From positions 1,736,001 through 1,800,000 of the forward strand of contig NZ_JACXSS010000001.1 in assembly GCF_014850955.1 (NCBI RefSeq): a stretch of DNA of 64,000 bases, given 5' to 3'. Every line of letters begins with the position of its first letter. Position 1 is the first letter of the stretch. The notes under the pieces are model-generated. The model was not told the origin of the DNA. It worked only from the letters and a program-made list of their open reading frames with translations, and ran no database searches. The DNA comes from Methylomonas albis. Lineage in GTDB: Bacteria > Pseudomonadota > Gammaproteobacteria > Methylococcales > Methylomonadaceae. This document shows positions 22,668 through 37,493 of the stretch, one piece after another. The position numbers were made by a program, and so were the translations under genes.

Positions 22668-23486
22668 TCAGTAACGGTCCACACTTTCGCTTAGCGTTAC
22701 TGTGTGTAAATTCGCGGCGGCGATGGCATCCAGCAAGGGCGGCAGCACTTCCAGAATCACCGGTTGGCCGGTATTGGTGCGGGCGGCATTGCTGTCGTGT
22801 AACAACAGGATGTCGCCTGCTTTCAGGTCTTTCAATAGTTTTGTCAATACCACCTGCGGATTGCGCTCCACAGTATCAAAGCCGCGCCGGGTCCAACTCG
22901 CCAATTGTAAATCGAGCCGATTGAGTACCGGGTCCAGGAAAGGATTGCGCAAACCGACGGGTGGCCGGAAAAATCGGGGGCGGATGCCGGTCACTTCAGT
23001 CAGAGCATCCTGCGCCGCGTTTAGTTCGGCTAACCAGCCTTTTAGCAACAGAAACGGCAGATGGTATTGGTGGCGCATACTGTGATTTTCCACCGTGTGC
23101 CCCCGCTTGACAATGTCCCGGCACAAATCCGGGTAGAGTTGGGCTTTTGCGGCGATGCAAAAAAAAGTCGCTTTGGCGTTGTAGCTGTCCAATAGATCGA
23201 GCACGACGGGCGTGATGTCGGGATCGGGGCCGTCGTCTATGGTGATGGCAATTTCGCCTCGTGCGGCGGCGGCTGGCGGCAGCGCAGTCCAGTTCGAGCC
23301 AGCCCAGGCACAGCGCGGCCAGAGCCCGGCAAAGGCTAACAGCAGCTGGTCGGCAACGATGATGGTCAAAGCCCAGGGCCAGACATCAGGTTGGATGGCT
23401 ATCGCCACTGCTGCAGCTACTGTCAGCATAAATGAAACTTTCATCAACGCCGTCGGCTGCCAGTTTCGGTAAGCGGAAAAACTCAT
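22668..23486 (-). CDS. Polysaccharide deacetylase (NodB/CE4 domain), membrane anchored
   Basis: A 272-residue protein with two N-terminal helices (residues 15-35 and 37-55), then a NodB domain. CE4 motifs visible are TIDDGPDPD (motif 1), HTVENHSMRHQ (metal-binding HxxxH), RFFRPPVGLR (motif 3) and ILLLHD (motif 5). It is a metal-dependent hydrolase, probably acting on N-acetyl or other acyl groups at the outer face of the inner membrane. It overlaps the acyl-CoA-dehydrogenase-like gene by four bases and so belongs to the minus arm of the biosynthetic locus, where it might trim the final product (inference). Confidence 0.85.
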   Translation of the reverse strand: MSFSAYRNWQPTALMKVSFMLTVAAAVAIAIQPDVWPWALTIIVADQLLLAFAGLWPRCAWAGSNWTALPPAAAARGEIAITIDDGPDPDITPVVLDLLDSYNAKATFFCIAAKAQLYPDLCRDIVKRGHTVENHSMRHQYHLPFLLLKGWLAELNAAQDALTEVTGIRPRFFRPPVGLRNPFLDPVLNRLDLQLASWTRRGFDTVERNPQVVLTKLLKDLKAGDILLLHDSNAARTNTGQPVILEVLPPLLDAIAAANLHTVTLSESVDRY

Positions 23487-24604
23487 GCTTGATGGGGTTG
23501 AGGGCTAAGTCTATAGGCGTCGCCGGTGCCGAGCAGGGCGGCGATCAGGTTTTTCTGCACTTCAGAACTGCCGGAAAACAGCCGTCCGGCCAGTGCGTCC
23601 TGAACCAATTGGGCCATCACACTCCCGGATTCCAAGCTCGCCGCGCCCATAATCTGCACCGCATCCAGGCTGGATTGCAAGAAAGCCTCGGCCGCATAAA
23701 GTTTGGTTTGCGCCGAAGCCATCGTCAGCCGTTGGCCGGCATCGCACAGCCTCGCACATTCACCTAACCACAGGTCGATCGTATCCAAACGCAACTTCAT
23801 ATCGGCAATCCTATGGCTGATGGCTTGATGGCGACCGAGATGCACACCGCCGGAACGCCTTTCCCGGCTGTAACGCACCACTTCGGCCAACTGCCAGTCC
23901 ATGCTGCCGGCAATGCCGGCAAACACAAAGGCCCGTTCGTATTCCAAGGCTTTTTGAATCATCTGGGTGCCGGCCCCGATTTTGCCCAGCAGACGATCAG
24001 CGTCGAGCCTACAATCCTGCAAAATCACGCTGCCGGTGGCGCTGCCCCGGCAAGCGTTCAACGCCGCGTCATCGCTGAAACGGCAGCCGTCATCATCACG
24101 GGAAACCAGAAACGCGCAAATCTTGCCGGCCAATTTGGCGTACACCACCAAGTAATCGGCCACGGGTGCGTTGGTGATGTAACGCTTCTCGCCGTTCAAC
24201 AGATAACTATCGCCGCTCAACTCTGCTTTAGTCGTCATCGCTTGCACGTCCGAGCCGCAAGACGGCTCGGTGATCGCATGCCCACCCAGCCATTGTCCGC
24301 TTAGTAAGGGCGGCAGAAATTGCCCTTTCTGCATCTCGTTGCCGTACAACAAAATAGGGAACGCCGAGCCCCACACATGCGCGTTGATCGCCAACATCAG
24401 GCCGGGATCACGGCAAGCTTGTCCGAGTTGACGATGGCTGGTGACTAGCGCGGCAAAGTCATCGCCAAAACCGCCAATGGCTTGGGGAAGGGCATGGCGG
24501 AACAGGCCTAGCGCGGCGACGGCGCGCAAGCGAGAAGCGATTTCGGCGGTGTTAGGCGGGCCTGCATAAGCAGCAATGCTGGAAAAATCAGGGGCTTTAG
24601 TCAT
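23483..24604 (-). CDS. Acyl-CoA dehydrogenase family flavoenzyme (possible prolyl-carrier dehydrogenase)
   Basis: A 373-residue FAD enzyme with the usual AITEPSCGSDVQAM motif (about residue 115) and a C-terminal SGSSEVQKNLIAALLG. The usual catalytic glutamate before GTS is replaced by serine (LFSGSS). Instead a glutamate is present in ALEYERAFVF, the position used by isovaleryl-CoA dehydrogenase and by the PltE/PigA/RedW enzymes that oxidise carrier-bound proline to pyrrole. With the stand-alone adenylation enzyme (26209-27651) and carrier protein (29043-29282) in the same strand arm, a role in making a pyrrolyl carrier protein is likely but inferred. An ordinary acyl-CoA dehydrogenase is the alternative. 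Confidence 0.8.
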   Translation of the reverse strand: MTKAPDFSSIAAYAGPPNTAEIASRLRAVAALGLFRHALPQAIGGFGDDFAALVTSHRQLGQACRDPGLMLAINAHVWGSAFPILLYGNEMQKGQFLPPLLSGQWLGGHAITEPSCGSDVQAMTTKAELSGDSYLLNGEKRYITNAPVADYLVVYAKLAGKICAFLVSRDDDGCRFSDDAALNACRGSATGSVILQDCRLDADRLLGKIGAGTQMIQKALEYERAFVFAGIAGSMDWQLAEVVRYSRERRSGGVHLGRHQAISHRIADMKLRLDTIDLWLGECARLCDAGQRLTMASAQTKLYAAEAFLQSSLDAVQIMGAASLESGSVMAQLVQDALAGRLFSGSSEVQKNLIAALLGTGDAYRLSPQPHQA

Positions 24605-24668
24605 GATTGAGTTTTATCGTGTTTTTATGACAGCGTTAATCGGCGCAGCCAGATTATATCGTTTGTAT

Positions 24669-24715
24669 CGTTCCCACGCTGCAGCGTGGGAATGCCGCTC
24701 CAGACGCTCCAGCGT
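24669..24715. repeat. REP hairpin, left of RAYT
   Basis: Contains the perfect 22-base palindrome ttcccacgctgcagcgtgggaa, then a second small hairpin with gacgctccagcgtc. The same elements occur in inverted orientation at 25271-25319 and again at 27674-27746. Such paired hairpins are the usual substrates of RAYT transposases. Confidence 0.8.
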
Positions 24716-24720
24716 CACGG

Positions 24721-25251
24721 CTACCAAGTATCGATATCGATCAAGCCACCCAATCCCGCATAGTTCGCAGCACTGGAATAGCGCCAATGCTCAGGCAAAT
24801 TCACATAACCCCGCTTCACCGGATTGGCGTGAATATAATCCAGTTTCTCCCGCATCATGGCTTCATTTAGAATCAACTCCGCATGCACGCCTTCCTGCCA
24901 GAACTGAAACTCCCGGTCATGTTTATGCGCGCATTTGGCAAAGCGCAATCTCTGCAATAAGTGTTCGGCTCGTTTCGCTTGCAGGTGATCGATAATCCGC
25001 CGCGCGGTATAGGCTTTGAAACTGGCAACGCATTTATCCAGCGTGGCACTCTGAGCGATGAAATGCAGATGGTTTTCCAGGATCACGTAGCCATAGAGTT
25101 TGAAGCCGACTTGTTGCCGTTGAAATTGCCAGCAGTCAAGCAGGATTTGCACGGTTGCCGGCCGGGTAAAGACCGGCAGCCATTCCACAACCGTGCAGGT
25201 CATGAAATGGGCTTGCTGGGGTTCAGTGATGATGTAACGACTTTGGGCCAT
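24721..25251 (-). CDS. REP-associated tyrosine transposase (RAYT, Y1/IS200-like)
   Basis: A 176-residue single-strand DNA transposase. The HUH metal motif is HLH in ENHLHFIAQ (about residue 62), and the nucleophile tyrosine is in FKAYTARRI (about residue 80). The C-terminus has the typical DYIHANPVKRGYVNLPEHWR segment. It is bounded at both ends by inverted REP hairpins, as expected for these domesticated transposases that cut and move REP sequences. It sits between the dehydrogenase gene and the Mrr gene inside the biosynthetic locus. Confidence 0.93.
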   Translation of the reverse strand: MAQSRYIITEPQQAHFMTCTVVEWLPVFTRPATVQILLDCWQFQRQQVGFKLYGYVILENHLHFIAQSATLDKCVASFKAYTARRIIDHLQAKRAEHLLQRLRFAKCAHKHDREFQFWQEGVHAELILNEAMMREKLDYIHANPVKRGYVNLPEHWRYSSAANYAGLGGLIDIDTW

Positions 25252-25270
25252 CGGCTGTTTGTGGGTTTAG

Positions 25271-25319: not shown

Positions 25320-25334
25320 AGAATGTGATGTTCG

Positions 25335-26111
25335 CTAATTCCTGTAACTCGCGAGCCAAGATTTCAGTGTTTCAAAGTCGTGTAGCCCAATACCGTATTT
25401 CAGAGGAGTTGCAAAATCTATCGCATTCTTGGTAAAGAAGGAAGTCGTCACAATCACACCTTTTGTAGCACGCTCGGAGTTTGTAACCCCATGAATCGCT
25501 CGGACCACTTCTACTCCTACCTTATTCTTTGGTGCGTATCGCTTACATTCAACCAAATAAAGTAAGCTACCGAGCGCATCGGAACGCGCAGCTAGGATAT
25601 CTCTCCCGCCATCACGAGTTCGCGGGGTAAGTGTAGGTTCGAAACCTTGAGCCCGAAGCAATTCGGCAACAAGTTCTTCGAACCGCCGAGGATGCAGGTC
25701 ATAAAGAAGTTCGGGGTGCTTGGCGAGATGGCGGATCAGTTCGTCGTTAACTTCAGCTACTGAACGCACTAATCCCGGGTCTGCGGCACCAGTCCCAACA
25801 GAATAGAGAAGAGGATATACATCAGAAAGAGGGGCATACGTTGTATACCCCTGTGCAAAACTTCGTTTGGAAAACGGATAACTCACAAAGCCGCGCGGCT
25901 TTCTCTCGCCTATGGCTTCTTGTTCGTTTTGCTCCATATGTTCAGTGCAAAGAAACGGGCACGTGTAGTCTTGCTCGAAAAACTCTTCGTTTTGGAAAGG
26001 GTAGTAATCGTAGAGATACACCTCATAATCAGCCAAGCGGGTACATTCGGCAGCAGAACACTTCCGCCCGGATTCATAGCTAAAATGCTTGATAGGTTCG
26101 ATCATTGGCAT
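25335..26111 (-). CDS. Mrr-type restriction endonuclease-like protein
   Basis: About 258 residues from ATG 26111 or 26105. The C-terminal half is an Mrr catalytic domain: FEELVAELLRAQGFE, then DGGRDILA, then LYLVECKRYAPKNKVGVE, giving the D...ExK nuclease core and the following helix. The N-terminal part has paired cysteines and a histidine (KCSAAEC, CPFLCTEH) that look like a small zinc site. Such proteins cleave modified or foreign DNA or act in restriction systems; no methyltransferase partner is nearby. It is richer in AT than its neighbours and lies with a RAYT inside a biosynthetic operon, so it was probably acquired. The frame extends upstream to 26261 over the next gene, but that part is not family-like. 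Confidence 0.8.
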   Translation of the reverse strand: MPMIEPIKHFSYESGRKCSAAECTRLADYEVYLYDYYPFQNEEFFEQDYTCPFLCTEHMEQNEQEAIGERKPRGFVSYPFSKRSFAQGYTTYAPLSDVYPLLYSVGTGAADPGLVRSVAEVNDELIRHLAKHPELLYDLHPRRFEELVAELLRAQGFEPTLTPRTRDGGRDILAARSDALGSLLYLVECKRYAPKNKVGVEVVRAIHGVTNSERATKGVIVTTSFFTKNAIDFATPLKYGIGLHDFETLKSWLASYRN

Positions 26112-26208
26112 GAGGCCAGAAAAGTGGTTATGAAGTTTCCGAATGTCATATCTAAATGTCGGTATCTTAATGAAGAGTCTAACTTCCGATTGCTGCCCGA
26201 TTCCAGGT

Positions 26209-27651
26209 TCATGTTTGCGTCTCCATAAACGCTCGCAATTGCTGAAAATCCAACTTCCCATTCGCCAATCGAGGCAACTCTTCCAAAACCAGATAACGAC
26301 TCGGCTGCATATAGGCGGGCAATTGGCGGCTGAGTGACTTGCGAATCTCGGCGATGCTCATTCCCGGTTCTAAAACCACTGCCAAAGCTGGACGCTGGCC
26401 GGCTGTGGGGTCGTCTATGCCGATCACGGCGCAAGCTTTGACTCCGGGGATGGCATTCACAACCGCCTCGATTTCCGCTGGTTCGACGCGGTAGCCGGAG
26501 CATTTCAGCATGCGGCCCAAACGGCCATGGAAGCGGTATTCATTTTGTTCCAGGCTGGCGCGGTCGCCGGTGGCATACCAACCGTCAGCGCTCATAAAAG
26601 ACTGCACGTGACCGTCGCGCCAGTAGCCGCTGGCTAGCGTCGGTCCGCGTACCCTTAGTTCGCCGGTGTCGGCGGAGATATGCAGTTCGCAGCCGGCGGC
26701 GGATAGGCCGATGGGGATGGTTTGCTCGGCGACCAAGCGCTCGCGTTGTACCGGCCAGTAACAGCAGACATTCGTTTCGGTGGGGCCGAAGAAATTGTAT
26801 AAGGCGGTCTGCGGCAAACTGGCGGCCAGATCGATCAGGGCCGGGGTGGGGAACACCTCGCCGGCGAAAATAATAAAGCGCAAAGCCGCCAGCGGGGTTT
26901 GCGCCAGGTTGCCTTTGTAGGTGAGGAAGGCCAGCAAGGACGGCACTGTGTACCAACCGCTGATGGCTTGTTCGTTCAGCCAGGCGCTCAAGCGAGCCGG
27001 GGCCATGGTCAAGCCGGCCGGGATGAAATGCAGGCTGGCGCCGCTGCCTAATACGGCGTAAAGATCGAAGGTGGATAGGTCGAAGAAAAACGGCGCGCTG
27101 CTAGCGATGCGGTCGTCAGGGGTTAAGGCCAGCAAGTCGGCGGCCCAGGATGTGAACGCCAAAATCGCCCGATGACTAAGCGCTACGCCGCGCGGTTGGC
27201 CGGTGGAGCCGGAGGTATACAAAATCGCCGCCAACGCTTCGGCGGGAATATCAACGACTGCGGGATTCGCGGCGGCGCAAGCGTTGATGTCCAGCCACAG
27301 GCTTTCATCCAGCCAAGTTGGTACTGCGCCGGTTCCCAATACCGTGTGAACCTGAGCGTCGGCGACGATAAAGTTAAGTCTGGGTGCCGGGTTTTTTAAA
27401 TCTAAAGGTACATAGCAAGCACCCGCCAGCAGAACGCCGAACAATGCGCAGGCGGCATCGATACCACGATCTAGATGCACCGCGACCGGCTGGCCGGGCT
27501 GTACGCCCTTCGCTTGCAAGGCAGCGGCGACGGCTTGTGCCTGTTGCAGTAATTGCCGATAGCTGAGTTGCCGATCTTGCTCTTGCAAAGCCAGGGCGTC
27601 GGGTTGGTGTTGGCATTGGTGTAGAAAGGGTTCTAGCAGCATGGGTGGCAA
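26209..27651 (-). CDS. Stand-alone amino acid adenylation enzyme (possible prolyl-AMP ligase)
   Basis: A 480-residue ANL-superfamily ligase. Motifs are A3 YTSGSTGQPRGVALSH, A4 FFFDLSTFDLY, A5 NFFGPTETNVC, A7 YATGDRA and A10 PRLANGKLDF. The aspartate in FDLS is the residue that binds the substrate amino group, so an alpha-amino acid is expected. Reading the Stachelhaus positions by eye gives D-L-F-Y-I-A-F-V-C, close to the proline code I recall for PltF/RedM (D-L-L-Y-L-A-L-V-C). Length and free-standing form also match PltF, PigI and RedM. It would load proline onto the carrier protein at 29043-29282. Other small hydrophobic amino acids remain possible. Confidence 0.85.
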   Translation of the reverse strand: MPPMLLEPFLHQCQHQPDALALQEQDRQLSYRQLLQQAQAVAAALQAKGVQPGQPVAVHLDRGIDAACALFGVLLAGACYVPLDLKNPAPRLNFIVADAQVHTVLGTGAVPTWLDESLWLDINACAAANPAVVDIPAEALAAILYTSGSTGQPRGVALSHRAILAFTSWAADLLALTPDDRIASSAPFFFDLSTFDLYAVLGSGASLHFIPAGLTMAPARLSAWLNEQAISGWYTVPSLLAFLTYKGNLAQTPLAALRFIIFAGEVFPTPALIDLAASLPQTALYNFFGPTETNVCCYWPVQRERLVAEQTIPIGLSAAGCELHISADTGELRVRGPTLASGYWRDGHVQSFMSADGWYATGDRASLEQNEYRFHGRLGRMLKCSGYRVEPAEIEAVVNAIPGVKACAVIGIDDPTAGQRPALAVVLEPGMSIAEIRKSLSRQLPAYMQPSRYLVLEELPRLANGKLDFQQLRAFMETQT

Positions 27652-27673
27652 ATTCTAAAAATAATGTACTTAT

Positions 27674-27756: not shown

Positions 27757-29046
27757 TTATGGGCTATTCAATAACTCGACATTCATCCGCGCAATCACCG
27801 CATCCAGCCACGCTTCGTCGATTGCTGGCGCTAAGTAGCTATAGGACAAAACCAGCTTGCCGTCGAGCTGGCTGGCCAGCAGCGCCAAACCGGGCGGCAA
27901 AGTCATCCAGCACATCAGGGATAGATTGCTGACCGGCACACCGAGAAAGCCTTTTTTGCTCCAGGACAAGTCGCCGATGTCGGAAAACCACAGCGAACTC
28001 AACTCGCCGCCGCTGTGTTGTTTGCGCAGCACTTTGGCATACTTTTCGGGTGACAACCATTGCCCCAGCCACATCAGCGGCAGGTAGGCCAAGTCCAGTT
28101 CATCTCGCACCACTTGCTGATGTTCGCTGAGTAAGTGCGCAAACAAGCCTGTTCTATCCCGCACCTGCTCGCGCGTCGCGCGGGCAAACAAGCAGCCGAT
28201 ATGGTTGCCAAATACCGGCGTTGGCGCATTCTGCCGCCGCAAGTTAAAAGCATAAGGGATGCAATAACCGTCTTTTGCGGCCGGCGGGCCGACCAATTCC
28301 ATGGCCCGCATAAAGCAGCCCAGATAGTACAAAGTGCGCCCGGTCAAACCGGTAGATTGTTGTGCCAATTTGGCGATGCCTTGCGACTGCTCGGCGTCGA
28401 AGCGCTGTACTTTTAACTGCAGGCGTTGCGGCCCTTGTTCAACTTGCGTGGGCAGGCAGCTATTCAGGCTATTGGCAGCGGTGTTATGGCGTTTGGCTTT
28501 GAAGAATAATTGCAGTTTTTTCCAGAAACTCCATTGCGCCAGTTTGGCTTCGATCAGCGATGGCGAGTCTTTGAAACTGTCCGGTTTGTCTGAGGACAAG
28601 AAATCCAGCAATATCTTGCAGCCTCGGGCATCTAATAGTGGATGCAGCCAGATCAGCAGCAGAGTGCCGCCTTCCGCCCCGGCTATCCAGTGTACGGTCA
28701 GCGGCCGGGATTCCGGACGATTGAAAATATCCAGCAGCAATTGTTGCGATTGCTCTGATTCGTCGGCACCGGGCCGGCATTGATGCAGTTCCAGCGCTAT
28801 GGGGTTGCCGGTAGCGACCCAGGCGAAACGCTTGCCGCGCGGCTGAATGATGGCTGAGGCTTGCGGAAAGCACTCCACCAGCAAATCCAGGCGCTTTTGC
28901 AGGGCCGGCAAATCCGGCGTGTCAGCCAATTGCAAGGCAAACCCGCAATATCCGCCCGGCATGCCGGCGTTGCGGATTTCCTGGTCGAGTACGAAGGTAA
29001 AATAATCGCCCGGATTGAACAGTTTCTCGGCAAGGTCAGTCATCAA
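27757..29046 (-). CDS. Condensation/WS-DGAT-like acyltransferase
   Basis: A 429-residue protein of the chloramphenicol-acetyltransferase-like fold. The catalytic HxxxD motif is visible as LHPLLDARG (about residue 133), and a second family-like segment is SLWFSDIGDLSWSKKGFLGV (about residue 340). It is probably a free-standing condensation enzyme or acyltransferase that uses a carrier-bound or CoA-bound acyl group. The ATG overlaps the carrier-protein stop by four bases, so the two are translationally coupled and likely partners. The acceptor is unknown. Confidence 0.75.
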   Translation of the reverse strand: MMTDLAEKLFNPGDYFTFVLDQEIRNAGMPGGYCGFALQLADTPDLPALQKRLDLLVECFPQASAIIQPRGKRFAWVATGNPIALELHQCRPGADESEQSQQLLLDIFNRPESRPLTVHWIAGAEGGTLLLIWLHPLLDARGCKILLDFLSSDKPDSFKDSPSLIEAKLAQWSFWKKLQLFFKAKRHNTAANSLNSCLPTQVEQGPQRLQLKVQRFDAEQSQGIAKLAQQSTGLTGRTLYYLGCFMRAMELVGPPAAKDGYCIPYAFNLRRQNAPTPVFGNHIGCLFARATREQVRDRTGLFAHLLSEHQQVVRDELDLAYLPLMWLGQWLSPEKYAKVLRKQHSGGELSSLWFSDIGDLSWSKKGFLGVPVSNLSLMCWMTLPPGLALLASQLDGKLVLSYSYLAPAIDEAWLDAVIARMNVELLNSP

Positions 29047-29282
29047 GCGTGGCCGCTGCGGCGTATCCAGTTTTCCAGTGCGTTCAGGCTACTGACGTTA
29101 TCCGGCTCGATTTCGGTGTCCGGCAGCGATACGCCGAATTCTTTCTCGGCGAACATGATCAGACGCATGATGCCCATGCTGTCCAGGCCGGCGTCCAACA
29201 GGTTGTCGTCATCGCCGAATGCAGCTGGATCTTCGTGGTAAATCAGTTCGGCGAAGATGAAATTCTTGAGTTTTTCCTTCAT
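29043..29282 (-). CDS. Acyl/peptidyl carrier protein
   Basis: A 79-residue carrier protein with the phosphopantetheine serine in DAGLDSMGIMRLI (about residue 35). It resembles DltC- and PltL/PigG-type free-standing carrier proteins more than fatty acid ACPs. First gene after the methyltransferase in the minus arm and coupled to the condensation-like gene. It is the likely acceptor of the amino acid activated by the adenylation enzyme. Confidence 0.9.
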   Translation of the reverse strand: MKEKLKNFIFAELIYHEDPAAFGDDDNLLDAGLDSMGIMRLIMFAEKEFGVSLPDTEIEPDNVSSLNALENWIRRSGHA

Positions 29283-29345: not shown

Positions 29346-29852
29346 TTATGCCAAGTCCGACGAGAACTTCTGTAAGGCAAAGCCCCAGCGCGGGACTTTA
29401 CGGCAATAGTCGTTATAAGACGCCCCAAATCGGCTGGCTAGGCCCGGTTCTTCGTGAAACACCACAGAGGTATGGAAAAACAGCGCAATCGAGGCCGCAT
29501 AAATTAACAGGGCCGGGCCGGCAAACAGCAAACATTCAGCCAACAACAGTAGCAGAACGCCTTGAAACATGGGGTTGCGAGTGCGGCGGTAAAGCCCGGT
29601 GACGACCAGTTTTTTGGGTGGATCGATTGGGGCAGGGGTGCCCAGGCCTTCTATGGCAAAATCCCAGACGCAGCGTAGATAAATGGCCGAACCGAGGATC
29701 AGGCAGATGCCGGCTGGCAGCGCCCAACCCGGATTAGCCGGTTGCAACTGACCGCTAGTATCGGAAAGCAAGCAGTAGGGAATATACAAAAGCACCGCGC
29801 CGGGAACGAGCAGGGTGAATAGTAGGATCTTGAAAGCAAGGAAAGGGCGCAC
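29346..29852 (-). CDS. Isoprenylcysteine carboxyl methyltransferase-family membrane protein
   Basis: About 168 residues with four or five helices. The C-terminal half has the family signature LYRRTRNPMFQGVLLLLLAE and FHEEPGLASRFGASYNDYCR, which bind S-adenosylmethionine in ICMT/PEMT-type methyltransferases. The start is uncertain: a GTG at 29852 precedes the first helix, while a TTG at 29924 would extend into the divergent promoter region. Probably methylates a carboxylate, phenol, amine or lipid headgroup in the membrane. It stands at the head of the minus arm, back to back with the ACP operon. Confidence 0.75.
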   Translation of the reverse strand: MRPFLAFKILLFTLLVPGAVLLYIPYCLLSDTSGQLQPANPGWALPAGICLILGSAIYLRCVWDFAIEGLGTPAPIDPPKKLVVTGLYRRTRNPMFQGVLLLLLAECLLFAGPALLIYAASIALFFHTSVVFHEEPGLASRFGASYNDYCRKVPRWGFALQKFSSDLA

Positions 29853-29935
29853 GTATCTGTTTCGGGATCGAAAATAAGTGAACGGTGTAGATTTCGGGCA
29901 ATTTTGGCATTCCCCACGCCGCAATCCAAGTGATT

Positions 29936-29994: not shown

Positions 29995-30258
29995 ATGTCA
30001 GATGACTTGATTAGCCAATTGAAAACCATGCTTATCGAGGGCTTGCTCCTGGAAGACATTGTCCCGGATGATCTGTCTGCGGATGATGCTTTATTCGGCG
30101 GCGGATTGGGATTGGACTCCATCGACGCGCTGGAAATTGGCGTGATGCTGGATCGTCAATACGGCATCAAGATCACCTCCGGCGACGAACGCAACAATCA
30201 GATTTTTCTCTCTCTCCGCTCGCTCGCCGAATTCGTTGCTGCAAACCGTATCCGTTAA
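29995..30258 (+). CDS. Acyl carrier protein (aryl-polyene-cluster type)
   Basis: An 87-residue ACP with the phosphopantetheine serine in GGLGLDSIDALEIGVML (about residue 41). Its C-terminal part, KITSGDERNNQIFLSLRSLA, is typical of ACPs from aryl polyene and related clusters. It is the first gene of a tight plus-strand run of six or more genes and two bases from the next. It should carry the growing chain for the ketosynthase pair at 33835-35786. Confidence 0.9.
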   Translation: MSDDLISQLKTMLIEGLLLEDIVPDDLSADDALFGGGLGLDSIDALEIGVMLDRQYGIKITSGDERNNQIFLSLRSLAEFVAANRIR

Positions 30259-30260
30259 GC

Positions 30261-30872
30261 ATGGGGAATGTTATCAAGCCGATAGCCATTGCCTGCCTAA
30301 TTATTGCCTATCCCTTTCTTAGCGCTTATCTGGCTGGTCTCGGTTTTGCCAGCTTAGAGCTATTCGTGTTCGCGGCGCTGACCCTATGGCGCGGCATTTC
30401 CGCAAGCCGCTTGTTGGCCCGATGGGGTAGTTTTTTATTGGCCGCCGTGTTGTTGGCCGGTGCCTATTTCGCCAACGCCTATTTCATCTGGTTGCTCCCC
30501 TCGTTTGCCTATTTGTGGCTGACATTCTTGTTTGGACATACCTTGTGGTCGCCGCCTTCTTTTATCGAACGCTTGGTGCGTTTGCAGTTTCCCGAACTAG
30601 TGCCGGGCATTGCTGACTATTGCCGGCAACTGACCTGGATTTGGACTGGGTTTTTTGCCGCCAATATAGGCATTTGCGCTGCGCTGCCGGCTCTTGCAGG
30701 ACAAACTGCTTGGGCACTTTACACCGGTGTGTTGGTGTATCTGTTGATGGGCATGCTGGGAACTGGCGAATGGTTTTACCGGCATAGGCGTTTTCCCGAT
30801 CTGGAGATTCCGCCGGCGTTGGAAACTTTTAAGTGCATTGCCATGAATGGGCATAAGGTCTTCAAGGGATGA
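30261..30872 (+). CDS. COG4648-type membrane protein
   Basis: A 203-residue integral membrane protein with about six helices, a central LFGHTLWSPPSFIERLVR motif and a soluble C-terminus (WFYRHRRFPDLEIPPALETF). It matches the conserved membrane protein encoded between the ACP and LolA-like genes of aryl polyene clusters, whose role is unknown. It overlaps the next gene by four bases. Confidence 0.75.
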   Translation: MGNVIKPIAIACLIIAYPFLSAYLAGLGFASLELFVFAALTLWRGISASRLLARWGSFLLAAVLLAGAYFANAYFIWLLPSFAYLWLTFLFGHTLWSPPSFIERLVRLQFPELVPGIADYCRQLTWIWTGFFAANIGICAALPALAGQTAWALYTGVLVYLLMGMLGTGEWFYRHRRFPDLEIPPALETFKCIAMNGHKVFKG

Positions 30873-31501
30873 ACGTCAAACTCGGCGGATATTTGCTCTT
30901 GGCTTTATTGCCAACGCTGGGATGGGCCGATGAAGCCTTACTAACCGAGCTGTTGGCTCGCATCCGCCAAACCGGGCAGACGCAATTTAAATACGAGGAA
31001 ACCCGCGTGCTGGAGCTGGCCGCGTCGCCCTGGCATGGGCAAGGTTATATGCTGTCTGGCGCTGATGGCAGTCTGGTCAAATTGCAACTGCAGCCGGCGC
31101 GGGTGATCATGGCCATCACCGAACAGCGTATGTATTATTGGGATCCCGAGCAAAACCAACGCCACAGCGCGGCTTTGGGCGCGGCGGGTCCCGCAGGCGA
31201 TCAAATCGCCGTATTCCGTTCCATCCTGCAAGGCCACACTGAAGAATTGCAGCTTAACTATGCCATCGCCGCTGAAAAGCAAGGCCCGCAATGGACTTTG
31301 CGGTTGACGCCGAAGCCGGAGCTGAGCGGTGATGATCTCGCTTCTATTGAAATATCCGGCGATGACAAAGACGAGCAACGGCGCATTTTAATCAAACAGC
31401 CCGACGGCGAATCCACCGAGTACCGGATGCAGAAAGCCACTGAAGCGCAGCAACAGGAATATTCCATCCAGCGTTTGCTGCTGGAAGCCAGCGGAGAATA
31501 A
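30869..31501 (+). CDS. LolA-like outer-membrane lipoprotein carrier family protein
   Basis: A 210-residue secreted protein with a signal peptide (LLLALLPTLGWA) and a LolA-like beta sheet (FKYEETRVLELAASPWHGQG, AITEQRMYYWDP). In aryl polyene clusters a LolA homologue next to an MMPL exporter is thought to carry the lipid-like product through the periplasm. The gene order here is the same: ACP, COG4648, LolA, MMPL, ketosynthase. Confidence 0.82.
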   Translation: MNVKLGGYLLLALLPTLGWADEALLTELLARIRQTGQTQFKYEETRVLELAASPWHGQGYMLSGADGSLVKLQLQPARVIMAITEQRMYYWDPEQNQRHSAALGAAGPAGDQIAVFRSILQGHTEELQLNYAIAAEKQGPQWTLRLTPKPELSGDDLASIEISGDDKDEQRRILIKQPDGESTEYRMQKATEAQQQEYSIQRLLLEASGE

Positions 31502-31504: not shown

Positions 31505-33838
31505 GTGTCTTTTGTTTGGAGAAAGCGCTGGTTCATGCTGTTGTTTCCGCTGTTGTTGGCGGTCACTTTCTGGCAAATCCGCGTCGAAACCGACCTGAAC
31601 GCCTTTTTTACCGCCACCGACGACGAGGATTCCAGGCTGCTGTCCGGCTTGTTAAAATCCGGCGAACTATCGCGGCGTTATTTGTTAGTGGTCGAAAAAG
31701 CCGAGCAAGCAAGCTCGACCGGCCAAACCAGTATCCCGGAAAATCCTGTTTCGATTGCCGAGTTTAGCGCGCGACTGGTGCAACAGCTCGCCAAACGGGA
31801 TGATGTGGAACAAGTATGGCCGGCAGACCAGCCGCCGCGCGACTGGATAGCTGCCGTAGCCTCTTATGCGCCTTACCATGCCCGCCTATTCAGCCTTAAC
31901 CCTGCAGAAGATAGCCACGAATTGTTCGATTCCGGCCAGCTGGAAGCCAAGGCCGAAGGTCTCAAACAAGCGCTGCTTTCGCCCCAGGGCGGCTTCGTCA
32001 AAACCGTCGCCAAGCAGGATCCTTTGCTGCTGTCTTTAAACGGCTTCAAGGATTTGCAAGGCCAATTCCAGCAACAAGCCCAGCTCGGTAGTGGCGGTGC
32101 GTTGATTTTGCAAAGTCGGCCGGCCGCTCTTGATTCCGAAGCGCATATTAGATTGCAAGCGGCGATTCGGGCCAGCTTCGCCAGCTTGAATACCGCTGCC
32201 GGCGGCACGTTCCGGCTGGCGATGGCCGGGGTGCCGGTTTTCAGCGTGGCCGCGCAAAGCGAGATTAGCCAGGATGTGACGTTGGTGTCGGTGGTGTCCA
32301 GTCTCGCTGTGGCCTTGGTGTTTTTATTTCTGTTTCATTCCTTTTCGGCTTTGCACTGGGTGATGATGGTGCAGGCCGCGTCTTTTGTGGTCGGCACCTT
32401 GGCCACCGCCTTGGTTTTCCCGCAGGTTCATAGTTTGACGTTGGCCTTGGGTGCCAGCTTGATCGGCATTTCCTCCGATTATCCCATTCATGTGATGGTG
32501 CATTGCGCCAAACACCGCAACACGCCGCTATCGGCGGCCAAGCTGTTGTGGCCCAGTCTGTTAATGGGCGGCTTGACCACCGTGATCGGTTACGGCGCCT
32601 TGGGCTTTACCGGATTTCCCGGATTCGAGCAAATTGCGGTGTTTGCTCTGGCTAGCGTCGTCGGGTCTTTGGGCTTGACCCGCTGGGTGTTGCCGGCCTT
32701 GCTGGTCAATTCCTCGCTGCATTCCGCGCATTTGCCCGGTATCGCCGCTTGGGTGGATTTCTGCGGCCGTCACCGGAAAGTCTTGCTGGGCTTGTTTGCA
32801 GTCAGCGTGCTACTGGCCGGGTTGTGCCTGCCGCAAATCCGTTGGATGGACGATATGCAGAAGCTGGCTGTGGACATGGATTTGTTGAAACAGCAGGATG
32901 CTGCGGTGCGTGCGCATTTTTCCAGTATCGAGCCGGGCCGCTTTGTGTTGATACAAGCGGACGACTGGGAAACCGCGCTGCAACGATCCGAAGCCGCCGA
33001 ACGGCGTTTGAAAACCTTAAAACAAGCCGGAGTCGTCAGTGCATACCACGGCCTGTTTCCCTGGTTGGTGTCCGCACAGTTACAAACCGAAAACGCCCAG
33101 GTTTACGAACGGGCTTTAACGCCGGAATTTCGGCAAGCCTGGCAAGCAGGATTATCCAAGGCTGGTCTATCGGTCGAGAAGCTGGGAGCTTTATTGCCCG
33201 CTTCGGCTGAAGTATTGCAACCCGTTGCAGTAATGGATTCGCCGGTGCGGCACATCCTGTCCGGACAAATGCTGGCAGGGGATAATGGCGTGATATTGTC
33301 GTTGTGGCTGGGCGAGCACGATCCCGACAAACTGAGTGAAGGCTTGGCCGGTTTGGCCGGCACGCGTTACTTCAGTCAAAAGGATCAATTAGATCACTTG
33401 GCCGGCAAATATCGGGACCGTTCCTTGGTGATGCTGGGCATAGGTATTGGGGTGATGGCATTGTTTATCTGGTTGCAGGAACGCAATCTACGCAAGGTGT
33501 TTTTGACCTTGCTGCCTTCCGTGGCTGCCGTGCTGTTTATTTTCGCCACCTGGGCGCTGATGGGCGAGGAAGTCAGTTTTCTGCACGTGATTGGCTTGTT
33601 ACTGTCGGTGTCGCTGTGCGTGGATTACGGCATATTTTTTATCGACAATCGCGGCAAGGATGCCGATGTTACTTATCACGCCATCGCCTCATCAACGCTA
33701 ACCACGTTGGCGTCTTTCGGCGCTTTGGGATTGGGCAAGACGCCAACCTTGCCAATTCTGGCACTCTCGGTAAGCTTGGGTGTGACCCTGGGCTTTCTAC
33801 TCTGCCCTTTACTGATCCAAAAACCCAGCAATCAATGA
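31505..33838 (+). CDS. MMPL/RND-type lipid exporter
   Basis: A 777-residue inner-membrane transporter from a GTG start, three bases after the LolA-like gene. It has the two-fold RND architecture: one helix, a periplasmic domain, then five helices (about residues 255-400, with LGASLIGISSDYPIHVMVH), repeated in the second half with the corresponding SLCVDYGIFFID motif (about residue 700). The acidic residues in these helices are the expected proton relay. It should export the finished polyketide/lipid. Its stop overlaps the ketosynthase start (ATGA). Confidence 0.88.
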   Translation: MSFVWRKRWFMLLFPLLLAVTFWQIRVETDLNAFFTATDDEDSRLLSGLLKSGELSRRYLLVVEKAEQASSTGQTSIPENPVSIAEFSARLVQQLAKRDDVEQVWPADQPPRDWIAAVASYAPYHARLFSLNPAEDSHELFDSGQLEAKAEGLKQALLSPQGGFVKTVAKQDPLLLSLNGFKDLQGQFQQQAQLGSGGALILQSRPAALDSEAHIRLQAAIRASFASLNTAAGGTFRLAMAGVPVFSVAAQSEISQDVTLVSVVSSLAVALVFLFLFHSFSALHWVMMVQAASFVVGTLATALVFPQVHSLTLALGASLIGISSDYPIHVMVHCAKHRNTPLSAAKLLWPSLLMGGLTTVIGYGALGFTGFPGFEQIAVFALASVVGSLGLTRWVLPALLVNSSLHSAHLPGIAAWVDFCGRHRKVLLGLFAVSVLLAGLCLPQIRWMDDMQKLAVDMDLLKQQDAAVRAHFSSIEPGRFVLIQADDWETALQRSEAAERRLKTLKQAGVVSAYHGLFPWLVSAQLQTENAQVYERALTPEFRQAWQAGLSKAGLSVEKLGALLPASAEVLQPVAVMDSPVRHILSGQMLAGDNGVILSLWLGEHDPDKLSEGLAGLAGTRYFSQKDQLDHLAGKYRDRSLVMLGIGIGVMALFIWLQERNLRKVFLTLLPSVAAVLFIFATWALMGEEVSFLHVIGLLLSVSLCVDYGIFFIDNRGKDADVTYHAIASSTLTTLASFGALGLGKTPTLPILALSVSLGVTLGFLLCPLLIQKPSNQ

Positions 33839-35037
33839 CCTTGTCGCCGCTGATCTCTCCCGTCGCCGTCACGGCCTACCAGTGCGTCAGTGCTGGCGGC
33901 GACGATGTCGAAGCCTTGTATACCAGCCTGATCGCCAATCGTACCTGTCTGAGCCCTTTAACTCTATTTGCTATTCCTTTCGAAACCCTGGTGGGCGAGG
34001 TCAGGTCAACATTGCCGGCAATTCGTTCCAGCATGCAAGCCTACGACTGCCGCAATGCCAGATTGGCGTTGAAAGCTTTGAATCAAGGCGCTTTCCGCAC
34101 CGACCTCGAACGAGCAAGAGCAAGTTACGGCGCGGGGCGAGTGGGTTTGATATTGGGTACCAGTACCTCAGGCATTTACGATTCCGAAAACGCCTATGCG
34201 CGGCTGTTGCAGGAAGGGGCCATGCCCAAGGATTTTGAGTTTCTGCAGGTGCAGACGGCTCAGGCTACCGCCGAATTTTTGCAACGGGAGTTAGGCTTGC
34301 AAGGGCCTTGCTACGCCATATCCACGGCATGTTCTTCCAGTGCCAAGGCTTTGGCGGTGGGGCAACGCTTAATCGCCACCGGCTGTTGCGACGCGGTGTT
34401 GGTGGCTGGGGTGGATAGCCTGTGCCGTTTGACGCTACGCGGCTTTAACAGCTTGCAGTTGATTGCGCCGGATGCCTGCCGGCCTATGGATGCCGACCGT
34501 CAAGGGATCAATATAGGCGAGGGCGCGGCCTTATTGTTGCTGGAAAAACCAAGCGCCGACAACGCCGGCCGGCCCCGACTACTGGCGGTGGGCGAATCCT
34601 CGGATGCTCATCATATGAGTGCCCCGCATCCCGATGGCGTCGGCGCCGCTACAGCTATGGCTCAGGCCTTGCGACTGGCGGGGCGGGAAGTGGGGGAAGT
34701 CGATTACATCAACCTGCACGCGACCGCCAGCTCACTCAACGATCAGTCCGAAGCCAGGGCCGTCGTCAGCTTGTTTCCCAACCCGCCGCCTTGTAGTGGC
34801 GTCAAAGGATTGCTGGGTCATACCCTGGGCGCGGCCGGTGCGGTGGAAACGGTGGTCAGCCTGTTGGCCTTGGATCGCGGCTTTTTGCCCGGCACCTGCG
34901 GCTTGCGGCAGCCGGACCCGCAATGTCTATTCTCGGTGATCGCCGCACCGAACCTGCAAATAAATCCGCGACTGATATTGAGCAATGCCTTTGGCTTTGG
35001 CGGCAACAACGCCAGCGTGTTACTGGAGGCGGCGTGA
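33835..35037 (+). CDS. Beta-ketoacyl-ACP synthase (FabF-like ketosynthase)
   Basis: A 400-residue ketosynthase from the ATG at 33835, which overlaps the exporter stop. The catalytic triad is visible: cysteine in STACSSSAKAL (about residue 165), histidine in NLHATASSLNDQSEA (about 300) and histidine in GLLGHTLGAAGAVE (about 330). It ends with NAFGFGGNNASVLL. It performs decarboxylative chain extension on the ACP. The next gene starts inside its stop (TGATG), and the two probably form a KS/CLF heterodimer. Upstream reading in this frame to 33616 lies inside the exporter gene and is not used. Confidence 0.92.
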   Translation: MTLSPLISPVAVTAYQCVSAGGDDVEALYTSLIANRTCLSPLTLFAIPFETLVGEVRSTLPAIRSSMQAYDCRNARLALKALNQGAFRTDLERARASYGAGRVGLILGTSTSGIYDSENAYARLLQEGAMPKDFEFLQVQTAQATAEFLQRELGLQGPCYAISTACSSSAKALAVGQRLIATGCCDAVLVAGVDSLCRLTLRGFNSLQLIAPDACRPMDADRQGINIGEGAALLLLEKPSADNAGRPRLLAVGESSDAHHMSAPHPDGVGAATAMAQALRLAGREVGEVDYINLHATASSLNDQSEARAVVSLFPNPPPCSGVKGLLGHTLGAAGAVETVVSLLALDRGFLPGTCGLRQPDPQCLFSVIAAPNLQINPRLILSNAFGFGGNNASVLLEAA

Positions 35038-35786
35038 TGCAATACATGAGTTTACTGGGCTTTGGGGTCTGCGCGCCGGATACTGAGTTTCGGGACAGTT
35101 TGCCGTTTCCGGCCTTTGATATTAATCGCGAAACCATTCCGCCGCTGTTGCGGCGGCGTAGTAGTCAGGCGATGCAAATGGCATTCAGCGCTGCGGCGGC
35201 AGCTTGCGAGCATGCCCGGCGTTCGCCGGCCACGCTGCCGTCGATATTTGCCAGCGTGGCCGGCGAAATAAAGACCACCGATCAGCTTTGCAGCGAGTTG
35301 GTCAAAGCGGATGGGGTGATGTCTCCCAGCGCTTTTCACAATTCCGTGCAAAACACCGCAGCCGGATATTGGAGTATTGCCCAGCAATGCACCCAGCCGG
35401 CCAGCGCGTTGGCGGCAGGAACAGACACCTTGGCGATGGCCTTGCTCGAAGCTTGGTGCCAATTGGCTTGTCAGGGCGGCGAACTGCTGCTGGTTTGCTA
35501 CGATGAAACCTGGCCGGCTTATCTAGCGCCGAATAGAGGCAATCCGGCTTTTGCCTGTGCCTTGGTTTTAGCGGCAGGAAATGTAGACAGCAGTGTCGTT
35601 CAAATAGGCAGGCCGCAAGCCGGAGAGGCCATTTTTTCGCCTGCCTGGATAGCGTTGACGGATGGCATGCCGATTTTGGCGGCCATTCCTTTACTTGCCG
35701 CGAGTTCAGTTGGGGCAGGGGCGCAGACCATAGCGCTGACGCCAAATACTCCTGGTTGGCAAGTTGATGTAGTAGGCAGGAAATAA
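35037..35786 (+). CDS. Ketosynthase-like chain length factor
   Basis: A 249-residue truncated ketosynthase homologue starting MQYMSLLGFGVCAPDTEFRD. Where a ketosynthase has its cysteine this protein reads SPSAFHNSVQNTAAGYWSIA, so there is no nucleophile. This matches the chain-length-factor partner found after the ketosynthase in aryl polyene clusters. It should shape the product chain length in a heterodimer with the preceding enzyme. Confidence 0.85.
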   Translation: MQYMSLLGFGVCAPDTEFRDSLPFPAFDINRETIPPLLRRRSSQAMQMAFSAAAAACEHARRSPATLPSIFASVAGEIKTTDQLCSELVKADGVMSPSAFHNSVQNTAAGYWSIAQQCTQPASALAAGTDTLAMALLEAWCQLACQGGELLLVCYDETWPAYLAPNRGNPAFACALVLAAGNVDSSVVQIGRPQAGEAIFSPAWIALTDGMPILAAIPLLAASSVGAGAQTIALTPNTPGWQVDVVGRK

Positions 35787-35878: not shown

Positions 35879-36280
35879 ATGAAACACTATAAAACTTTGG
35901 CATTCGTCGCCGCTCTGGCGCTGGGCGCAGGCTGTGCATCCAGCAACAAAGCGCCTTCTCAAGCGGCCGCTCCGGCAAGCACCGCACCCGAGTCGCGAAT
36001 TGACGGTAATTTCCCGGCCAATAGTCCGTTCGCCAAACTCAAGCTCGGTATGACACAAGGCCAAGTCCACGAAATTCTCGGTCAACCCACCGATACCAAG
36101 TCTTACCAAACCGGCAAAGCCTGGATCCCGTTTTATTTCGGCCCGGATGTGATGCGGACCGATGAGTTTTACAAAGGCGTAGGCGTTATTACTTACACCG
36201 GTGCCGGCATCGGCGGCGTGCATTGGACCGTGTACCGAGCCATTTACAACACCGCCGAAGACGGTTATCCGAACGATTAA
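35879..36280 (+). CDS. SmpA/BamE-like lipoprotein
   Basis: A 133-residue lipoprotein with lipobox LGAGC, a short linker rich in alanine and proline, and a BamE-like segment FAKLKLGMTQGQVHEILGQP. The rest (YFGPDVMRTDEFYKGVG, then GAGIGGVHWTVYRA) is characteristic of a small family seen with envelope genes. Probably in the outer membrane. It precedes the halogenase-like gene by seven bases and so likely shares its transcript. Confidence 0.75.
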   Translation: MKHYKTLAFVAALALGAGCASSNKAPSQAAAPASTAPESRIDGNFPANSPFAKLKLGMTQGQVHEILGQPTDTKSYQTGKAWIPFYFGPDVMRTDEFYKGVGVITYTGAGIGGVHWTVYRAIYNTAEDGYPND

Positions 36281-36287
36281 CAAAACG

Positions 36288-37493
36288 ATGCTCGCCAATA
36301 AACAAAACGGTTTTGACTATGATGTGGTGGTCGTCGGTGGCGGCCCGGCCGGTTCGACGGCCGCGACTTTGTTGGCGCAATATGGTCACAAGATTTTGTT
36401 GTTGGAGAGTGTTAGGCATCCGCGCTTCCATATCGGCGAATCCATGTTGCCGTTTAGCGAACCGGTCATTCAACGTTTGGGCATAGATTGGAGTGCGGGC
36501 AACCTGTCTAAAAGTGGGGCGGTGTTCATAGACGAAGCGACCGGACAGCAGATGTATTTTCCGTTGAGCATACACCGCAAAACCTACCAGATTGAACGTG
36601 GCCCTTTCGATCAACTGTTGTTTGAAAACGCCGCGAAACACGGCGTCGAAACACATCAGGCAGAAAAAGTCTTGGATGTTTCCCGCCAGCCGGCAGGGGT
36701 TGATGTCGTGTCAGACAAGGGTCAATACCGCTGTCGTTATCTGATCGATGCCACGGGCCGCAGTGCATTGATGGGTAGGAAAGATAAGGCCATCAAACGT
36801 ATCGAAAATTTGGGCAAGTTTGCGGTGTATAGCCATTTTGAGAATATTCAGGCGGGTGCGGAGGCCGATGAACTGTTCCGCACCGGCAATATTTATGTGC
36901 CGGTCGTGGATATAGGCTGGATCTGGATCATCCCACTGGCCGGGCGGCGCGTGAGCGTGGGATTGGTGGTACAAAAAGAAAGGCCCAAAGACGGTGATGC
37001 AGAAGATTTGTTGCGCCGTTATCTGGCGGCTTCGCCGATCTTGAACCGTTTGTTGGCCGGGGCAGGGCAATCCGCGCCGGTGCGAGTAGAAGCCGATTTT
37101 AGCTACACCAACCAAAGCCGCTATGGTTCCCGCTACGCCTGTTGCGGCGATGCCGCCGGCTTCCTTGATCCGGTATTTTCCTCCGGCGTATTTCTGGCGC
37201 TCACTAGCGCCGCCCGCGTTGCTGATCGCGTCCATCAAGGATTTGCAGCGGGGTGTGAAGCCGATCCCGAGCTTCACACTGAAGATGACCAAAGCTACTT
37301 GCTGGGTTTCAACACCATGCGGCTGTTTGTGGAACGCTTTTACCAATCCAACATCGTCCATAATTTGTTCTTCGAAGCTGACCGAGCCCCCGATTTGAAA
37401 GCCCAGATTGCCCAGTTGCTGGCGGGAGATTTATGGGTCGACGACAACAAACTGCAACAAAGTCTGCTGGCCGGTCGCCGCAGTGTAAGTTAG
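36288..37493 (+). CDS. Flavin-dependent halogenase-like oxidoreductase
   Basis: A 401-residue FAD protein from the ATG at 36288. It begins DVVVVGGGPAGSTAATLLAQ (GxGxxG dinucleotide site) and contains HIGESMLP. Three halogenase hallmarks are present: WIWIIP (the WxWxIP motif, about residue 210), FLDPVFSSG (the FxxPxxSxG motif, about 295) and a candidate active lysine in LSKSGAVF (about 72). Length fits carrier-bound pyrrole halogenases (PltA/Bmp2 group) better than tryptophan halogenases, which are some 100 residues longer. It would chlorinate or brominate an aromatic starter unit. It may instead be a related monooxygenase; substrate and activity are inferred. Confidence 0.78.
   Translation: MLANKQNGFDYDVVVVGGGPAGSTAATLLAQYGHKILLLESVRHPRFHIGESMLPFSEPVIQRLGIDWSAGNLSKSGAVFIDEATGQQMYFPLSIHRKTYQIERGPFDQLLFENAAKHGVETHQAEKVLDVSRQPAGVDVVSDKGQYRCRYLIDATGRSALMGRKDKAIKRIENLGKFAVYSHFENIQAGAEADELFRTGNIYVPVVDIGWIWIIPLAGRRVSVGLVVQKERPKDGDAEDLLRRYLAASPILNRLLAGAGQSAPVRVEADFSYTNQSRYGSRYACCGDAAGFLDPVFSSGVFLALTSAARVADRVHQGFAAGCEADPELHTEDDQSYLLGFNTMRLFVERFYQSNIVHNLFFEADRAPDLKAQIAQLLAGDLWVDDNKLQQSLLAGRRSVS

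What the first reader, a model, noticed from the sequence alone, without database searches (positions are those of the whole stretch)
22668..37493. Possible new hybrid system: pyrrole-starter trio, flavin halogenase, KS/CLF pair and aryl-polyene-type exporter in one locus
The minus arm encodes a stand-alone adenylation enzyme, a carrier protein and an acyl-CoA-dehydrogenase-like enzyme, the three activities that make pyrrolyl-carrier protein from proline in pyoluteorin and prodiginine pathways. The divergent plus arm has ACP, COG4648, LolA-like, MMPL, KS and CLF genes in the order of aryl polyene clusters, then a halogenase-like enzyme. The ketoreductase, dehydratases and aromatic ammonia lyase of classical aryl polyene clusters are not visible here. 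A carrier-bound, perhaps halogenated, pyrrole feeding a membrane-exported polyketide would be unusual. This is inferred from gene content.
Basis: partly seen in the sequence, partly recalled or inferred. Interest (0 to 1): 0.82.

Follow-up and report, generated by a model that had tools for sequence, protein, structure and literature searches.

The report
Pyrrole module in methanotroph polyene cluster
Methane-eating bacteria carry a gene set that should turn proline into a pyrrole ring beside genes for making and exporting aryl polyene pigments, which points to an undescribed pyrrole-bearing variant of a very common class of bacterial pigment.

Summary
The plus arm encodes ACP, ApeG/LolA/RND-like export proteins, a KS/CLF pair, a lipoprotein and a halogenase-like flavoprotein.

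The "missing" ketoreductase and dehydratases lie in a second aryl polyene (APE) block of the same genome, about 0.52 Mb away, ending beside integrase and transposase genes. In close relatives, including Methylomonas sp. LW13, the two blocks are neighbours. So this is a split APE-type pathway with a pyrrole module, not a KR-less new system.

The condensation-fold gene, used as marker, is in 58 of 199 other related genomes; a pattern search of 84,980 species' genomes gave 65 loci, 57 titled as methanotrophs. All 39 adenylation domains read have a proline-type pocket. Against tight linkage, 21 of 65 loci show no APE gene in the DNA held.

Best reading: pyrrolyl-carrier protein feeds the APE pathway, probably by transfer of the pyrrolyl group onto the APE lipid; use as polyketide starter is a live rival. 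Halogenation is plausible, unproven. My open-access searches showed no description of it.

The parts
22668..23486 (-). NodB-type polysaccharide deacetylase, last gene of the minus arm
   Evidence: Pfam PF01522 8.5e-28; same place in many Methylomonas relatives
23483..24604 (-). prolyl-carrier-protein dehydrogenase (acyl-CoA dehydrogenase fold)
   Evidence: best PDB match 4irn prolyl-ACP dehydrogenase 5.9e-64; best NCBIfam PigA 265 and RedW 260 bits, next 176, all below the family cut-offs; tree groups it with prolyl-carrier enzymes, 100/99 against butyryl/isovaleryl-CoA DH
24721..25251 (-). REP-associated tyrosine transposase, insertion between A domain and dehydrogenase
   Evidence: NCBIfam NF047646 100.2 bits, cut-off 80; in 9 of 40 relatives' loci
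25335..26261 (-). Mrr-type restriction endonuclease domain protein, insertion (annotated start probably too early: overlaps the A-domain ORF)
   Evidence: Pfam PF04471 1.1e-29; in 1 of 40 relatives' loci (L027)
26209..27651 (-). stand-alone L-proline-type adenylation enzyme (likely ATG start at 27642)
   Evidence: pocket fragment: top two PDB matches are L-proline--PCP ligases 6o6e 7.8e-26 and 7thn 2.1e-21, next 2.7e-15; pocket letters DLFYIAFVCK
27757..29046 (-). 429-aa condensation-superfamily protein (ATG at 29043), motif HPLLDARG
29043..29282 (-). carrier protein (79 aa, LLDAGLDSMGI)
   Evidence: read from the sequence; NCBIfam carrier-protein matches, best 1.4e-10; directly upstream of the condensation-fold gene in 65 of 65 loci
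29346..29924 (-). ICMT/PEMT-type membrane methyltransferase
   Evidence: Pfam PF04191 3.4e-8
29995..30258 (+). acyl carrier protein
   Evidence: NCBIfam PRK09184 92.2 bits, cut-off 70
30261..30872 (+). ApeG/COG4648-like membrane protein
   Evidence: position; weak similarity to ApeG-like genes of APE loci
30869..31501 (+). LolA-like periplasmic carrier (ApeL-like)
   Evidence: PF19574 1.5e-4, TIGR00547 2.9e-4, both below cut-off
31505..33838 (+). MMPL/RND-type transporter (ApeM-like)
   Evidence: TIGR03480 HpnN 1.2e-18, below cut-off
33835..35037 (+). ketosynthase of the ApeO kind, own clade (KS_A)
   Evidence: PRK09185 463 bits; active Cys and two His present; tree
35037..35786 (+). chain length factor (ApeC kind)
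   Evidence: PF13723 4.2e-34
35879..36280 (+). BamE-like lipoprotein
   Evidence: PF04355 2.4e-5
36288..37493 (+). FAD-dependent halogenase-like protein (Hal_A)
   Evidence: PDB 5buk 1.6e-48, PltA 5dbj 4.1e-44; K76, W212xW214xIP and F293xxP296xxS299xG301 invariant in 29 rows

Best explanation
The locus is one half of a split aryl-polyene (APE) type pathway that has gained a proline-to-pyrrole module. Steps: (1) the adenylation enzyme loads L-proline on the 79-aa carrier protein; (2) the dehydrogenase oxidises it to pyrrolyl-2-carboxyl-carrier protein; (3) the halogenase-like flavoprotein may modify the carrier-bound pyrrole; (4) the condensation-fold enzyme, always next to the carrier protein, moves the pyrrolyl group onto a hydroxyl or amine acceptor in the APE pathway, most likely the APE lipid or its amino-sugar head group; (5) chain building uses the KS/CLF here with the KR, dehydratases, second KS, glycosyltransferase, acyltransferase and thioesterase of the APE block about 0.52 Mb away; (6) the LolA/RND/lipoprotein set here exports the lipid to the outer membrane. 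Gene identities, proline-type pocket, predicted fold, linkage in relatives and the split are shown; the chemistry of steps 1-2 follows from the families; steps 3-6 and the acceptor are inferred.
Against: No product is known and no enzyme was assayed. In 21 of 65 loci no APE gene lies in the DNA held, including L089, L094 and L129 with 21 kb held. 14 of 58 marker genomes had no KR match of the APE type at E <= 1e-100; in four others both are on one contig but 0.6 Mb or more apart. 13 of 58 lack Hal_A and 16 of 58 lack KS_A, so these are not needed for the module. Nine of 65 loci lack an A domain in the DNA held, 7 of them with 2.8-10 kb downstream; of 7 such genomes searched, 5 have it elsewhere and 2 have none at E <= 1e-70. 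KS_A has a pocket motif unlike ApeO, which fits the starter rival. The NodB deacetylase, on which the amino-sugar guess partly rests, is not near every module.
Confidence: 0.5

Rival explanations
1. Starter model: pyrrolyl-carrier protein (perhaps halogenated) is the starter unit that the KS/CLF of this locus elongates, with KR and dehydratases borrowed from the second APE block, giving a pyrrolyl-capped polyene instead of a 4-hydroxyphenyl-capped one; the condensation-fold enzyme shuttles pyrrolyl from the PCP to the ACP.
For: KS_A/CLF_A, their own ACP and Hal_A sit next to the module and co-occur with it (KS_A in 42 of 58, Hal_A in 45 of 58); KS_A is a separate clade from ApeO (95/77) with a consistently different stretch upstream of the active Cys: one inserted residue and no QQ motif in 24 of 24 KS_A rows against 8 of 8 ApeO-type rows.
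Against: A condensation-fold enzyme usually forms ester or amide bonds (established knowledge); 57 of 58 marker genomes keep an aryl-acid ligase; 16 of 58 have no KS_A. The KS tree has long branches and the split is only moderately supported.
Confidence: 0.3
2. Separate product: the module makes a small pyrrole metabolite of its own (an ester or amide made by the condensation-fold enzyme), and merely shares a neighbourhood and exporter with the APE genes.
For: 21 of 65 loci show no APE gene in the DNA held; in the window's own genome and four others with both on one contig (G007, G009, G013, G051) the module is 0.5 Mb or more from the APE KR.
Against: Two architectures in different genera place the module directly beside APE genes (L111, L130, L056, L059; and L068-L072); within the genus the marker, Hal_A and, in 17 of 19 genomes, KS_A occur together and are absent together.
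Confidence: 0.15
3. The halogenase-like protein is a flavin monooxygenase or another oxidoreductase, so the product is an unhalogenated or hydroxylated pyrrole/polyene (independent of the choice above).
For: A second flavoprotein in the APE block (Hal2, closest to 3nix 'flavoprotein/dehydrogenase', 5.7e-105) keeps the same K, WxWxIP and FxxPxxSxG positions, so motifs do not separate halogenase from other functions; NCBIfam halogenase, QhpG and geranylgeranyl-reductase models all match below cut-off.
Against: Hal_A is closest in the PDB to 5buk (1.6e-48) and PltA (4.1e-44) and is tied to the module (45 of its 47 genomes).
Confidence: 0.4

Closest known systems
Aryl polyene (APE) gene clusters, e.g. 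E. coli CFT073 ape (compared here as L062; gene table in passages of PMC8253772)
   Same: KS/CLF pair, ACP, ApeG-like, LolA-like and RND-type exporter in the window; KR, dehydratases, ApeR-like KS, glycosyltransferase, acyltransferase, thioesterase in the second block
   Different: Pathway split in two blocks with duplicated KS/CLF, ACP and ApeG; has a proline-type A domain, PCP, prolyl dehydrogenase, stand-alone condensation-fold protein, halogenase-like protein and NodB-type deacetylase that are not among the annotated genes of the E. coli cluster; in the second block no ligase lies between ApeG-like and ApeI-like genes, where E. coli has ApeH
PltF/PltL/PltE and PigI/PigG/PigA-type prolyl-carrier pathways (pyoluteorin, prodiginines; also anatoxin AnaB)
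   Same: stand-alone A domain with proline-type pocket, carrier protein, ACAD-fold prolyl dehydrogenase
   Different: genes are mixed with APE genes; a condensation-fold gene lies between carrier and A-domain genes
PltA / 5buk-type pyrrolyl-carrier halogenases
   Same: nearest solved structures; catalytic-lysine and FxxPxxSxG positions kept
   Different: about 50 residues shorter than 5buk and PltA; 5buk leads the next kind of halogenase (3e1t) by 15 bits and PltA leads it by 1 bit, so activity and substrate are not shown
Stand-alone condensation-superfamily proteins (AzeD, PapA5, SgcC5, wax synthase)
   Same: fold and HxxxD motif
   Different: 10-13% identity in the aligned parts; all relatives found lie next to one kind of carrier protein, and 57 of 65 are in genomes titled as methanotrophs

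Membership tests
Aryl polyene biosynthetic cluster | ApeO/ApeC-type KS-CLF pair | tested here: met
   PRK09185 and PF13723
Aryl polyene biosynthetic cluster | KR and dehydratases in the same locus (window alone) | tested here: not met
   absent from the window; so the window locus alone is not a complete APE cluster
Aryl polyene biosynthetic cluster | KR and dehydratases, counting both blocks of the genome | tested here: met
   second block of the same genome; adjacent in relatives
Aryl polyene biosynthetic cluster | ApeG/LolA-like/RND export set | tested here: met
   weak but ordered matches; no LolA/RND match in the second block or the next 11 kb
Aryl polyene biosynthetic cluster | aryl-acid ligase (ApeH) that loads the aromatic starter | tested here: inconclusive
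   ApeH-like ligase in the second block, 29% to E. coli ApeH; substrate unknown
Aryl polyene biosynthetic cluster | polyene pigment made | not testable with these tools
   needs metabolite analysis
Prolyl-to-pyrrolyl carrier module | A domain with proline-type pocket | tested here: met
Prolyl-to-pyrrolyl carrier module | dehydrogenase in the prolyl-carrier clade | tested here: met
   (NCBIfam scores below the equivalog cut-offs)
Prolyl-to-pyrrolyl carrier module | dedicated carrier protein next to them | tested here: met
Pyrrolyl-carrier halogenase (PltA type) | flavin site, catalytic Lys and FxxPxxSxG | tested here: met
Pyrrolyl-carrier halogenase (PltA type) | clade membership apart from other halogenase-like flavoproteins | tested here: inconclusive
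   scores to 5buk, PltA and 3e1t lie close together; no tree was made
Condensation/CAT-superfamily acyltransferase | fold and HxxxD active site | tested here: met
Condensation/CAT-superfamily acyltransferase | acyl transfer activity | not testable with these tools
   needs assay

The most novel reading that the evidence does not exclude
Methanotrophs make a pyrrole-bearing, possibly halogenated, outer-membrane aryl polyene lipid. Their APE clusters carry exchangeable carrier/condensation-enzyme/ligase cassettes, one for proline-derived pyrrole and one for another acid, that set the acyl group put on the lipid, a kind of APE diversification not yet described.
Probability: 0.33. Interest if true: 0.75.

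Novelty: new variant of a known kind. Interest (0 to 1): 0.6.

Why it matters
[quoted passage not shown] no pyrrole in the passages seen). A pyrrole module tied to them would mean that many of these predicted aryl polyenes are a different compound class. Related loci are in named strains (Methylomonas sp. LW13, Methylotuvimicrobium buryatense 5G), so the claim can be tested by gene deletion and mass spectrometry.

Tried and rejected
Rejected: a KR-less new polyketide system (KR and dehydratases found in the second block); a chance neighbourhood of the two arms; aryl ammonia lyase as a needed part (E. coli APE is predicted to start from 4-hydroxybenzoate, passages of PMC8253772); deciding halogenase activity from motifs (Hal2 shares them); deciding starter against decoration from the KS stretch (suggestive only). 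One search looked for the A domain where the flank held lacked it: found in 5 of 7 genomes. AzeD function: one search listed a review that mentions AzeD; I did not read it, and the name 'dehydratase' is the PDB title. L066 (a KS gene at 929 kb) and L067 (20 kb upstream of the window) gave nothing relevant.

Papers: PMC11964084, PMC12810054, PMC8253772 and PMC8358021 were seen as found passages; all others only as search listings. The searches behind 'showed no description': in one open-access library; (20 of 2,978; 15 of 30) only part of the list was shown, and listings were judged by title and start of abstract. GrsA pocket numbering, the identity of 6o6e/7thn as PltF/PigI and of 5buk as a pyrrole halogenase, the HxxxD and halogenase motifs, and the APE-lipid amino-sugar head group are recalled, not from a call.


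Full report
What is there. The window lies at G000:C1:1736001-1800000 of a 5.4-Mb genome; the nearest named relatives of its condensation-fold protein in genome contigs are Methylomonas strains (88-91%). Two divergent arms start between 29924 and 29995. Minus arm, in reading order: ICMT/PEMT-type methyltransferase, 79-aa carrier protein, a 429-aa protein without Pfam or NCBIfam match, a stand-alone adenylation enzyme, an Mrr nuclease and a REP-associated transposase as insertions, an ACAD-fold dehydrogenase, a NodB-type deacetylase. Plus arm: ACP, ApeG-like, LolA-like, MMPL/RND-like, KS, CLF, BamE-like lipoprotein, halogenase-like flavoprotein.

The pyrrole trio is well supported. With the whole A domain the first PDB matches are multi-domain gramicidin synthetase chains whose scores add two domains; among single-domain proteins the L-proline--carrier ligases 7thn and 6o6e lead. 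With the pocket fragment alone they are first and second (7.8e-26, 2.1e-21; next 2.7e-15). The pocket letters are DLFYIAFVCK; 39 of 39 module A domains aligned read DLFY-x-A-[FL]-VCK, and a Mycetohabitans A domain beside a carrier protein and an ACAD reads DLFYLALVCK, while E. coli and two methanotroph ApeH read YGF.... From the alignments I read DLLYLALVC for 6o6e and DLFYIAWVC for 7thn by hand. The dehydrogenase's best solved relative is prolyl-ACP dehydrogenase 4irn (5.9e-64), and a tree of 22 rows puts it with 4irn, 5zw0, 6cxt and the Mycetohabitans enzyme against butyryl- and isovaleryl-CoA dehydrogenases (100/99; three long branches flagged). Its NCBIfam scores (PigA 265, RedW 260) are far below those models' cut-offs (500, 650). 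Of five plasmid neighbourhoods opened out of 15 listed hits, four place the ACAD beside a carrier protein and an A domain; the fifth, in Methylocystis, lies among AMP-binding, PKS and PPTase genes.

The pathway is split, not KR-less. E. coli CFT073 ape proteins were used as queries. The own genome has a second block at C1 about 2.289-2.300 Mb, about 0.52 Mb from the window locus: ApeH-like ligase, flavoprotein Hal2, ApeO-like KS, dehydratase, KR (60% to E. coli), ApeR-like KS, CLF, ACP, ApeG-like, ApeI-like dehydratase, GT2, LpxL-like acyltransferase, thioesterase, then an integrase and a transposase gene. No LolA/RND match was found in it or in the next 11 kb. In relatives the same block abuts the NodB end of the window-type locus (L068-L072, named Methylomonas strains; L133-L136; these two sets overlap, L070 being G025). 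Of 58 marker genomes, 44 have the APE KR at E <= 1e-100; 27 have both on one contig and 21 of these within 25 kb; in four (G007, G009, G013, G051) they are more than 0.6 Mb apart.

Distribution. Searches covered the same 200 genomes, the own genome among them, so 199 others. The tallies use cut-offs that I chose after seeing the listings (condensation-fold marker 1e-60, KR 1e-100, Hal_A and KS_A 1e-130, second-block ligase about 1e-49, ApeH about 1e-68). The marker stands for the module; A domain and dehydrogenase were not sought genome by genome. Marker 58; Hal_A 47, both 45; KS_A 46, both 42; KR 81, both 44; an aryl-acid ligase in 57 of 58 (all but G151). Within the genus (36 genomes) marker and Hal_A occur in the same 19, KS_A in 17 of these (not in G008 and G016, both drafts) and in none of the others. 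The Fisher tests used 200 instead of 199 and ignore kinship; I do not lean on them. One search (two peptide patterns over 84,980 species' genomes, so distant relatives can be missed) gave 65 loci, 57 titled as methanotrophs; the other eight are unresolved MAG titles (proteobacterium, Gammaproteobacteria, 'bacterium') and one Thiotrichaceae. Two architectures recur: with KS_A/CLF_A/Hal_A/exporter, as in the window, and directly beside Hal2-ApeO-DH-KR-ApeR, as in Methylotuvimicrobium buryatense 5G (L130) and Methylomicrobium sp. wino1 (L111). Against tight linkage: 21 of 65 loci have no APE gene in the DNA held, some because the contig is short, but L089, L094 and L129 hold 21 kb. Of seven genomes whose carrier/condensation pair has no A domain nearby, two have none at E <= 1e-70.

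A parallel cassette. Weak condensation-protein matches (22-26%) led to six loci (G084, G065, G043, G118, G139, G090). Four (L148, L149, L150, L153) show, in order, a flavoprotein, a carrier protein, a condensation-fold-sized protein, an FAD-oxidoreductase-like protein and a ligase; Pfam was run on L148 only, where the condensation match is weak (6e-4, below cut-off) and the FAD_oxidored match strong (1.5e-63). L152 is cut and L151 has uncertain frames. The four ligases have HF-Y in the pocket and lack the Asp that binds an amino group; the one from L148 is nearest to feruloyl- and oxalate-CoA ligases. In L148, L149 and L153 the cassette sits beside Hal2-ApeO-KR-ApeR, the place the pyrrole module takes in M. 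buryatense. This suggests exchangeable acyl cassettes; it is an inference from few loci.

Halogenase and KS. Hal_A is nearest to 5buk (1.6e-48, 168.8 bits) and PltA (4.1e-44, 154.3) but 3e1t (153.5) and 8zop (149.3) follow closely, and Hal2, nearest to 3nix, shares every motif position. Halogenation is plausible, not shown. KS_A forms a clade apart from ApeO-type KS (95/77, with long-branch warnings), and all 24 KS_A rows differ from all 8 ApeO-type rows by an inserted residue and the loss of the QQ motif upstream of the active Cys. This is the best argument for the starter rival.

Verdict. Real, conserved and, as far as my searches go, undescribed: an APE-type pathway of methanotrophs with a proline-to-pyrrole module. 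What the pyrrole is joined to, and whether it is halogenated, needs chemistry.

Noticed in passing
L148:5813-11373, L149:7478-12998, L150:6458-12013, L153:5762-11194: A parallel flavoprotein/carrier/condensation-fold/FAD-oxidoreductase/ligase cassette lies in APE loci of other methanotrophs; its ligase pocket lacks the amino-acid Asp.
   Followed up: partly
L065:16837-18415: Integrase and DDE transposase genes directly after the APE thioesterase, at the point where relatives continue into the window-type locus; a likely cause of the split.
   Followed up: partly
window 24721-26261: REP-associated tyrosine transposase and Mrr nuclease inserted between A-domain and dehydrogenase genes; the transposase is in 9 of 40 relatives' loci, the Mrr gene in 1 of 40.
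   Followed up: partly
G000:C1:929170-929903 (L066): A KS gene matched in two open frames (143 and 298 aa), possibly a broken KS.
   Followed up: no
G000:C1:4286598-4360085: Eight ketosynthase matches within about 74 kb, one in an open frame of 9593 aa: a very large modular PKS region.
   Followed up: no
G200 (L119) and G202 (L106): Carrier protein and condensation-fold gene present but no proline-type A domain at E <= 1e-70 in the genome; decayed module, incomplete assembly or other donor.
   Followed up: no
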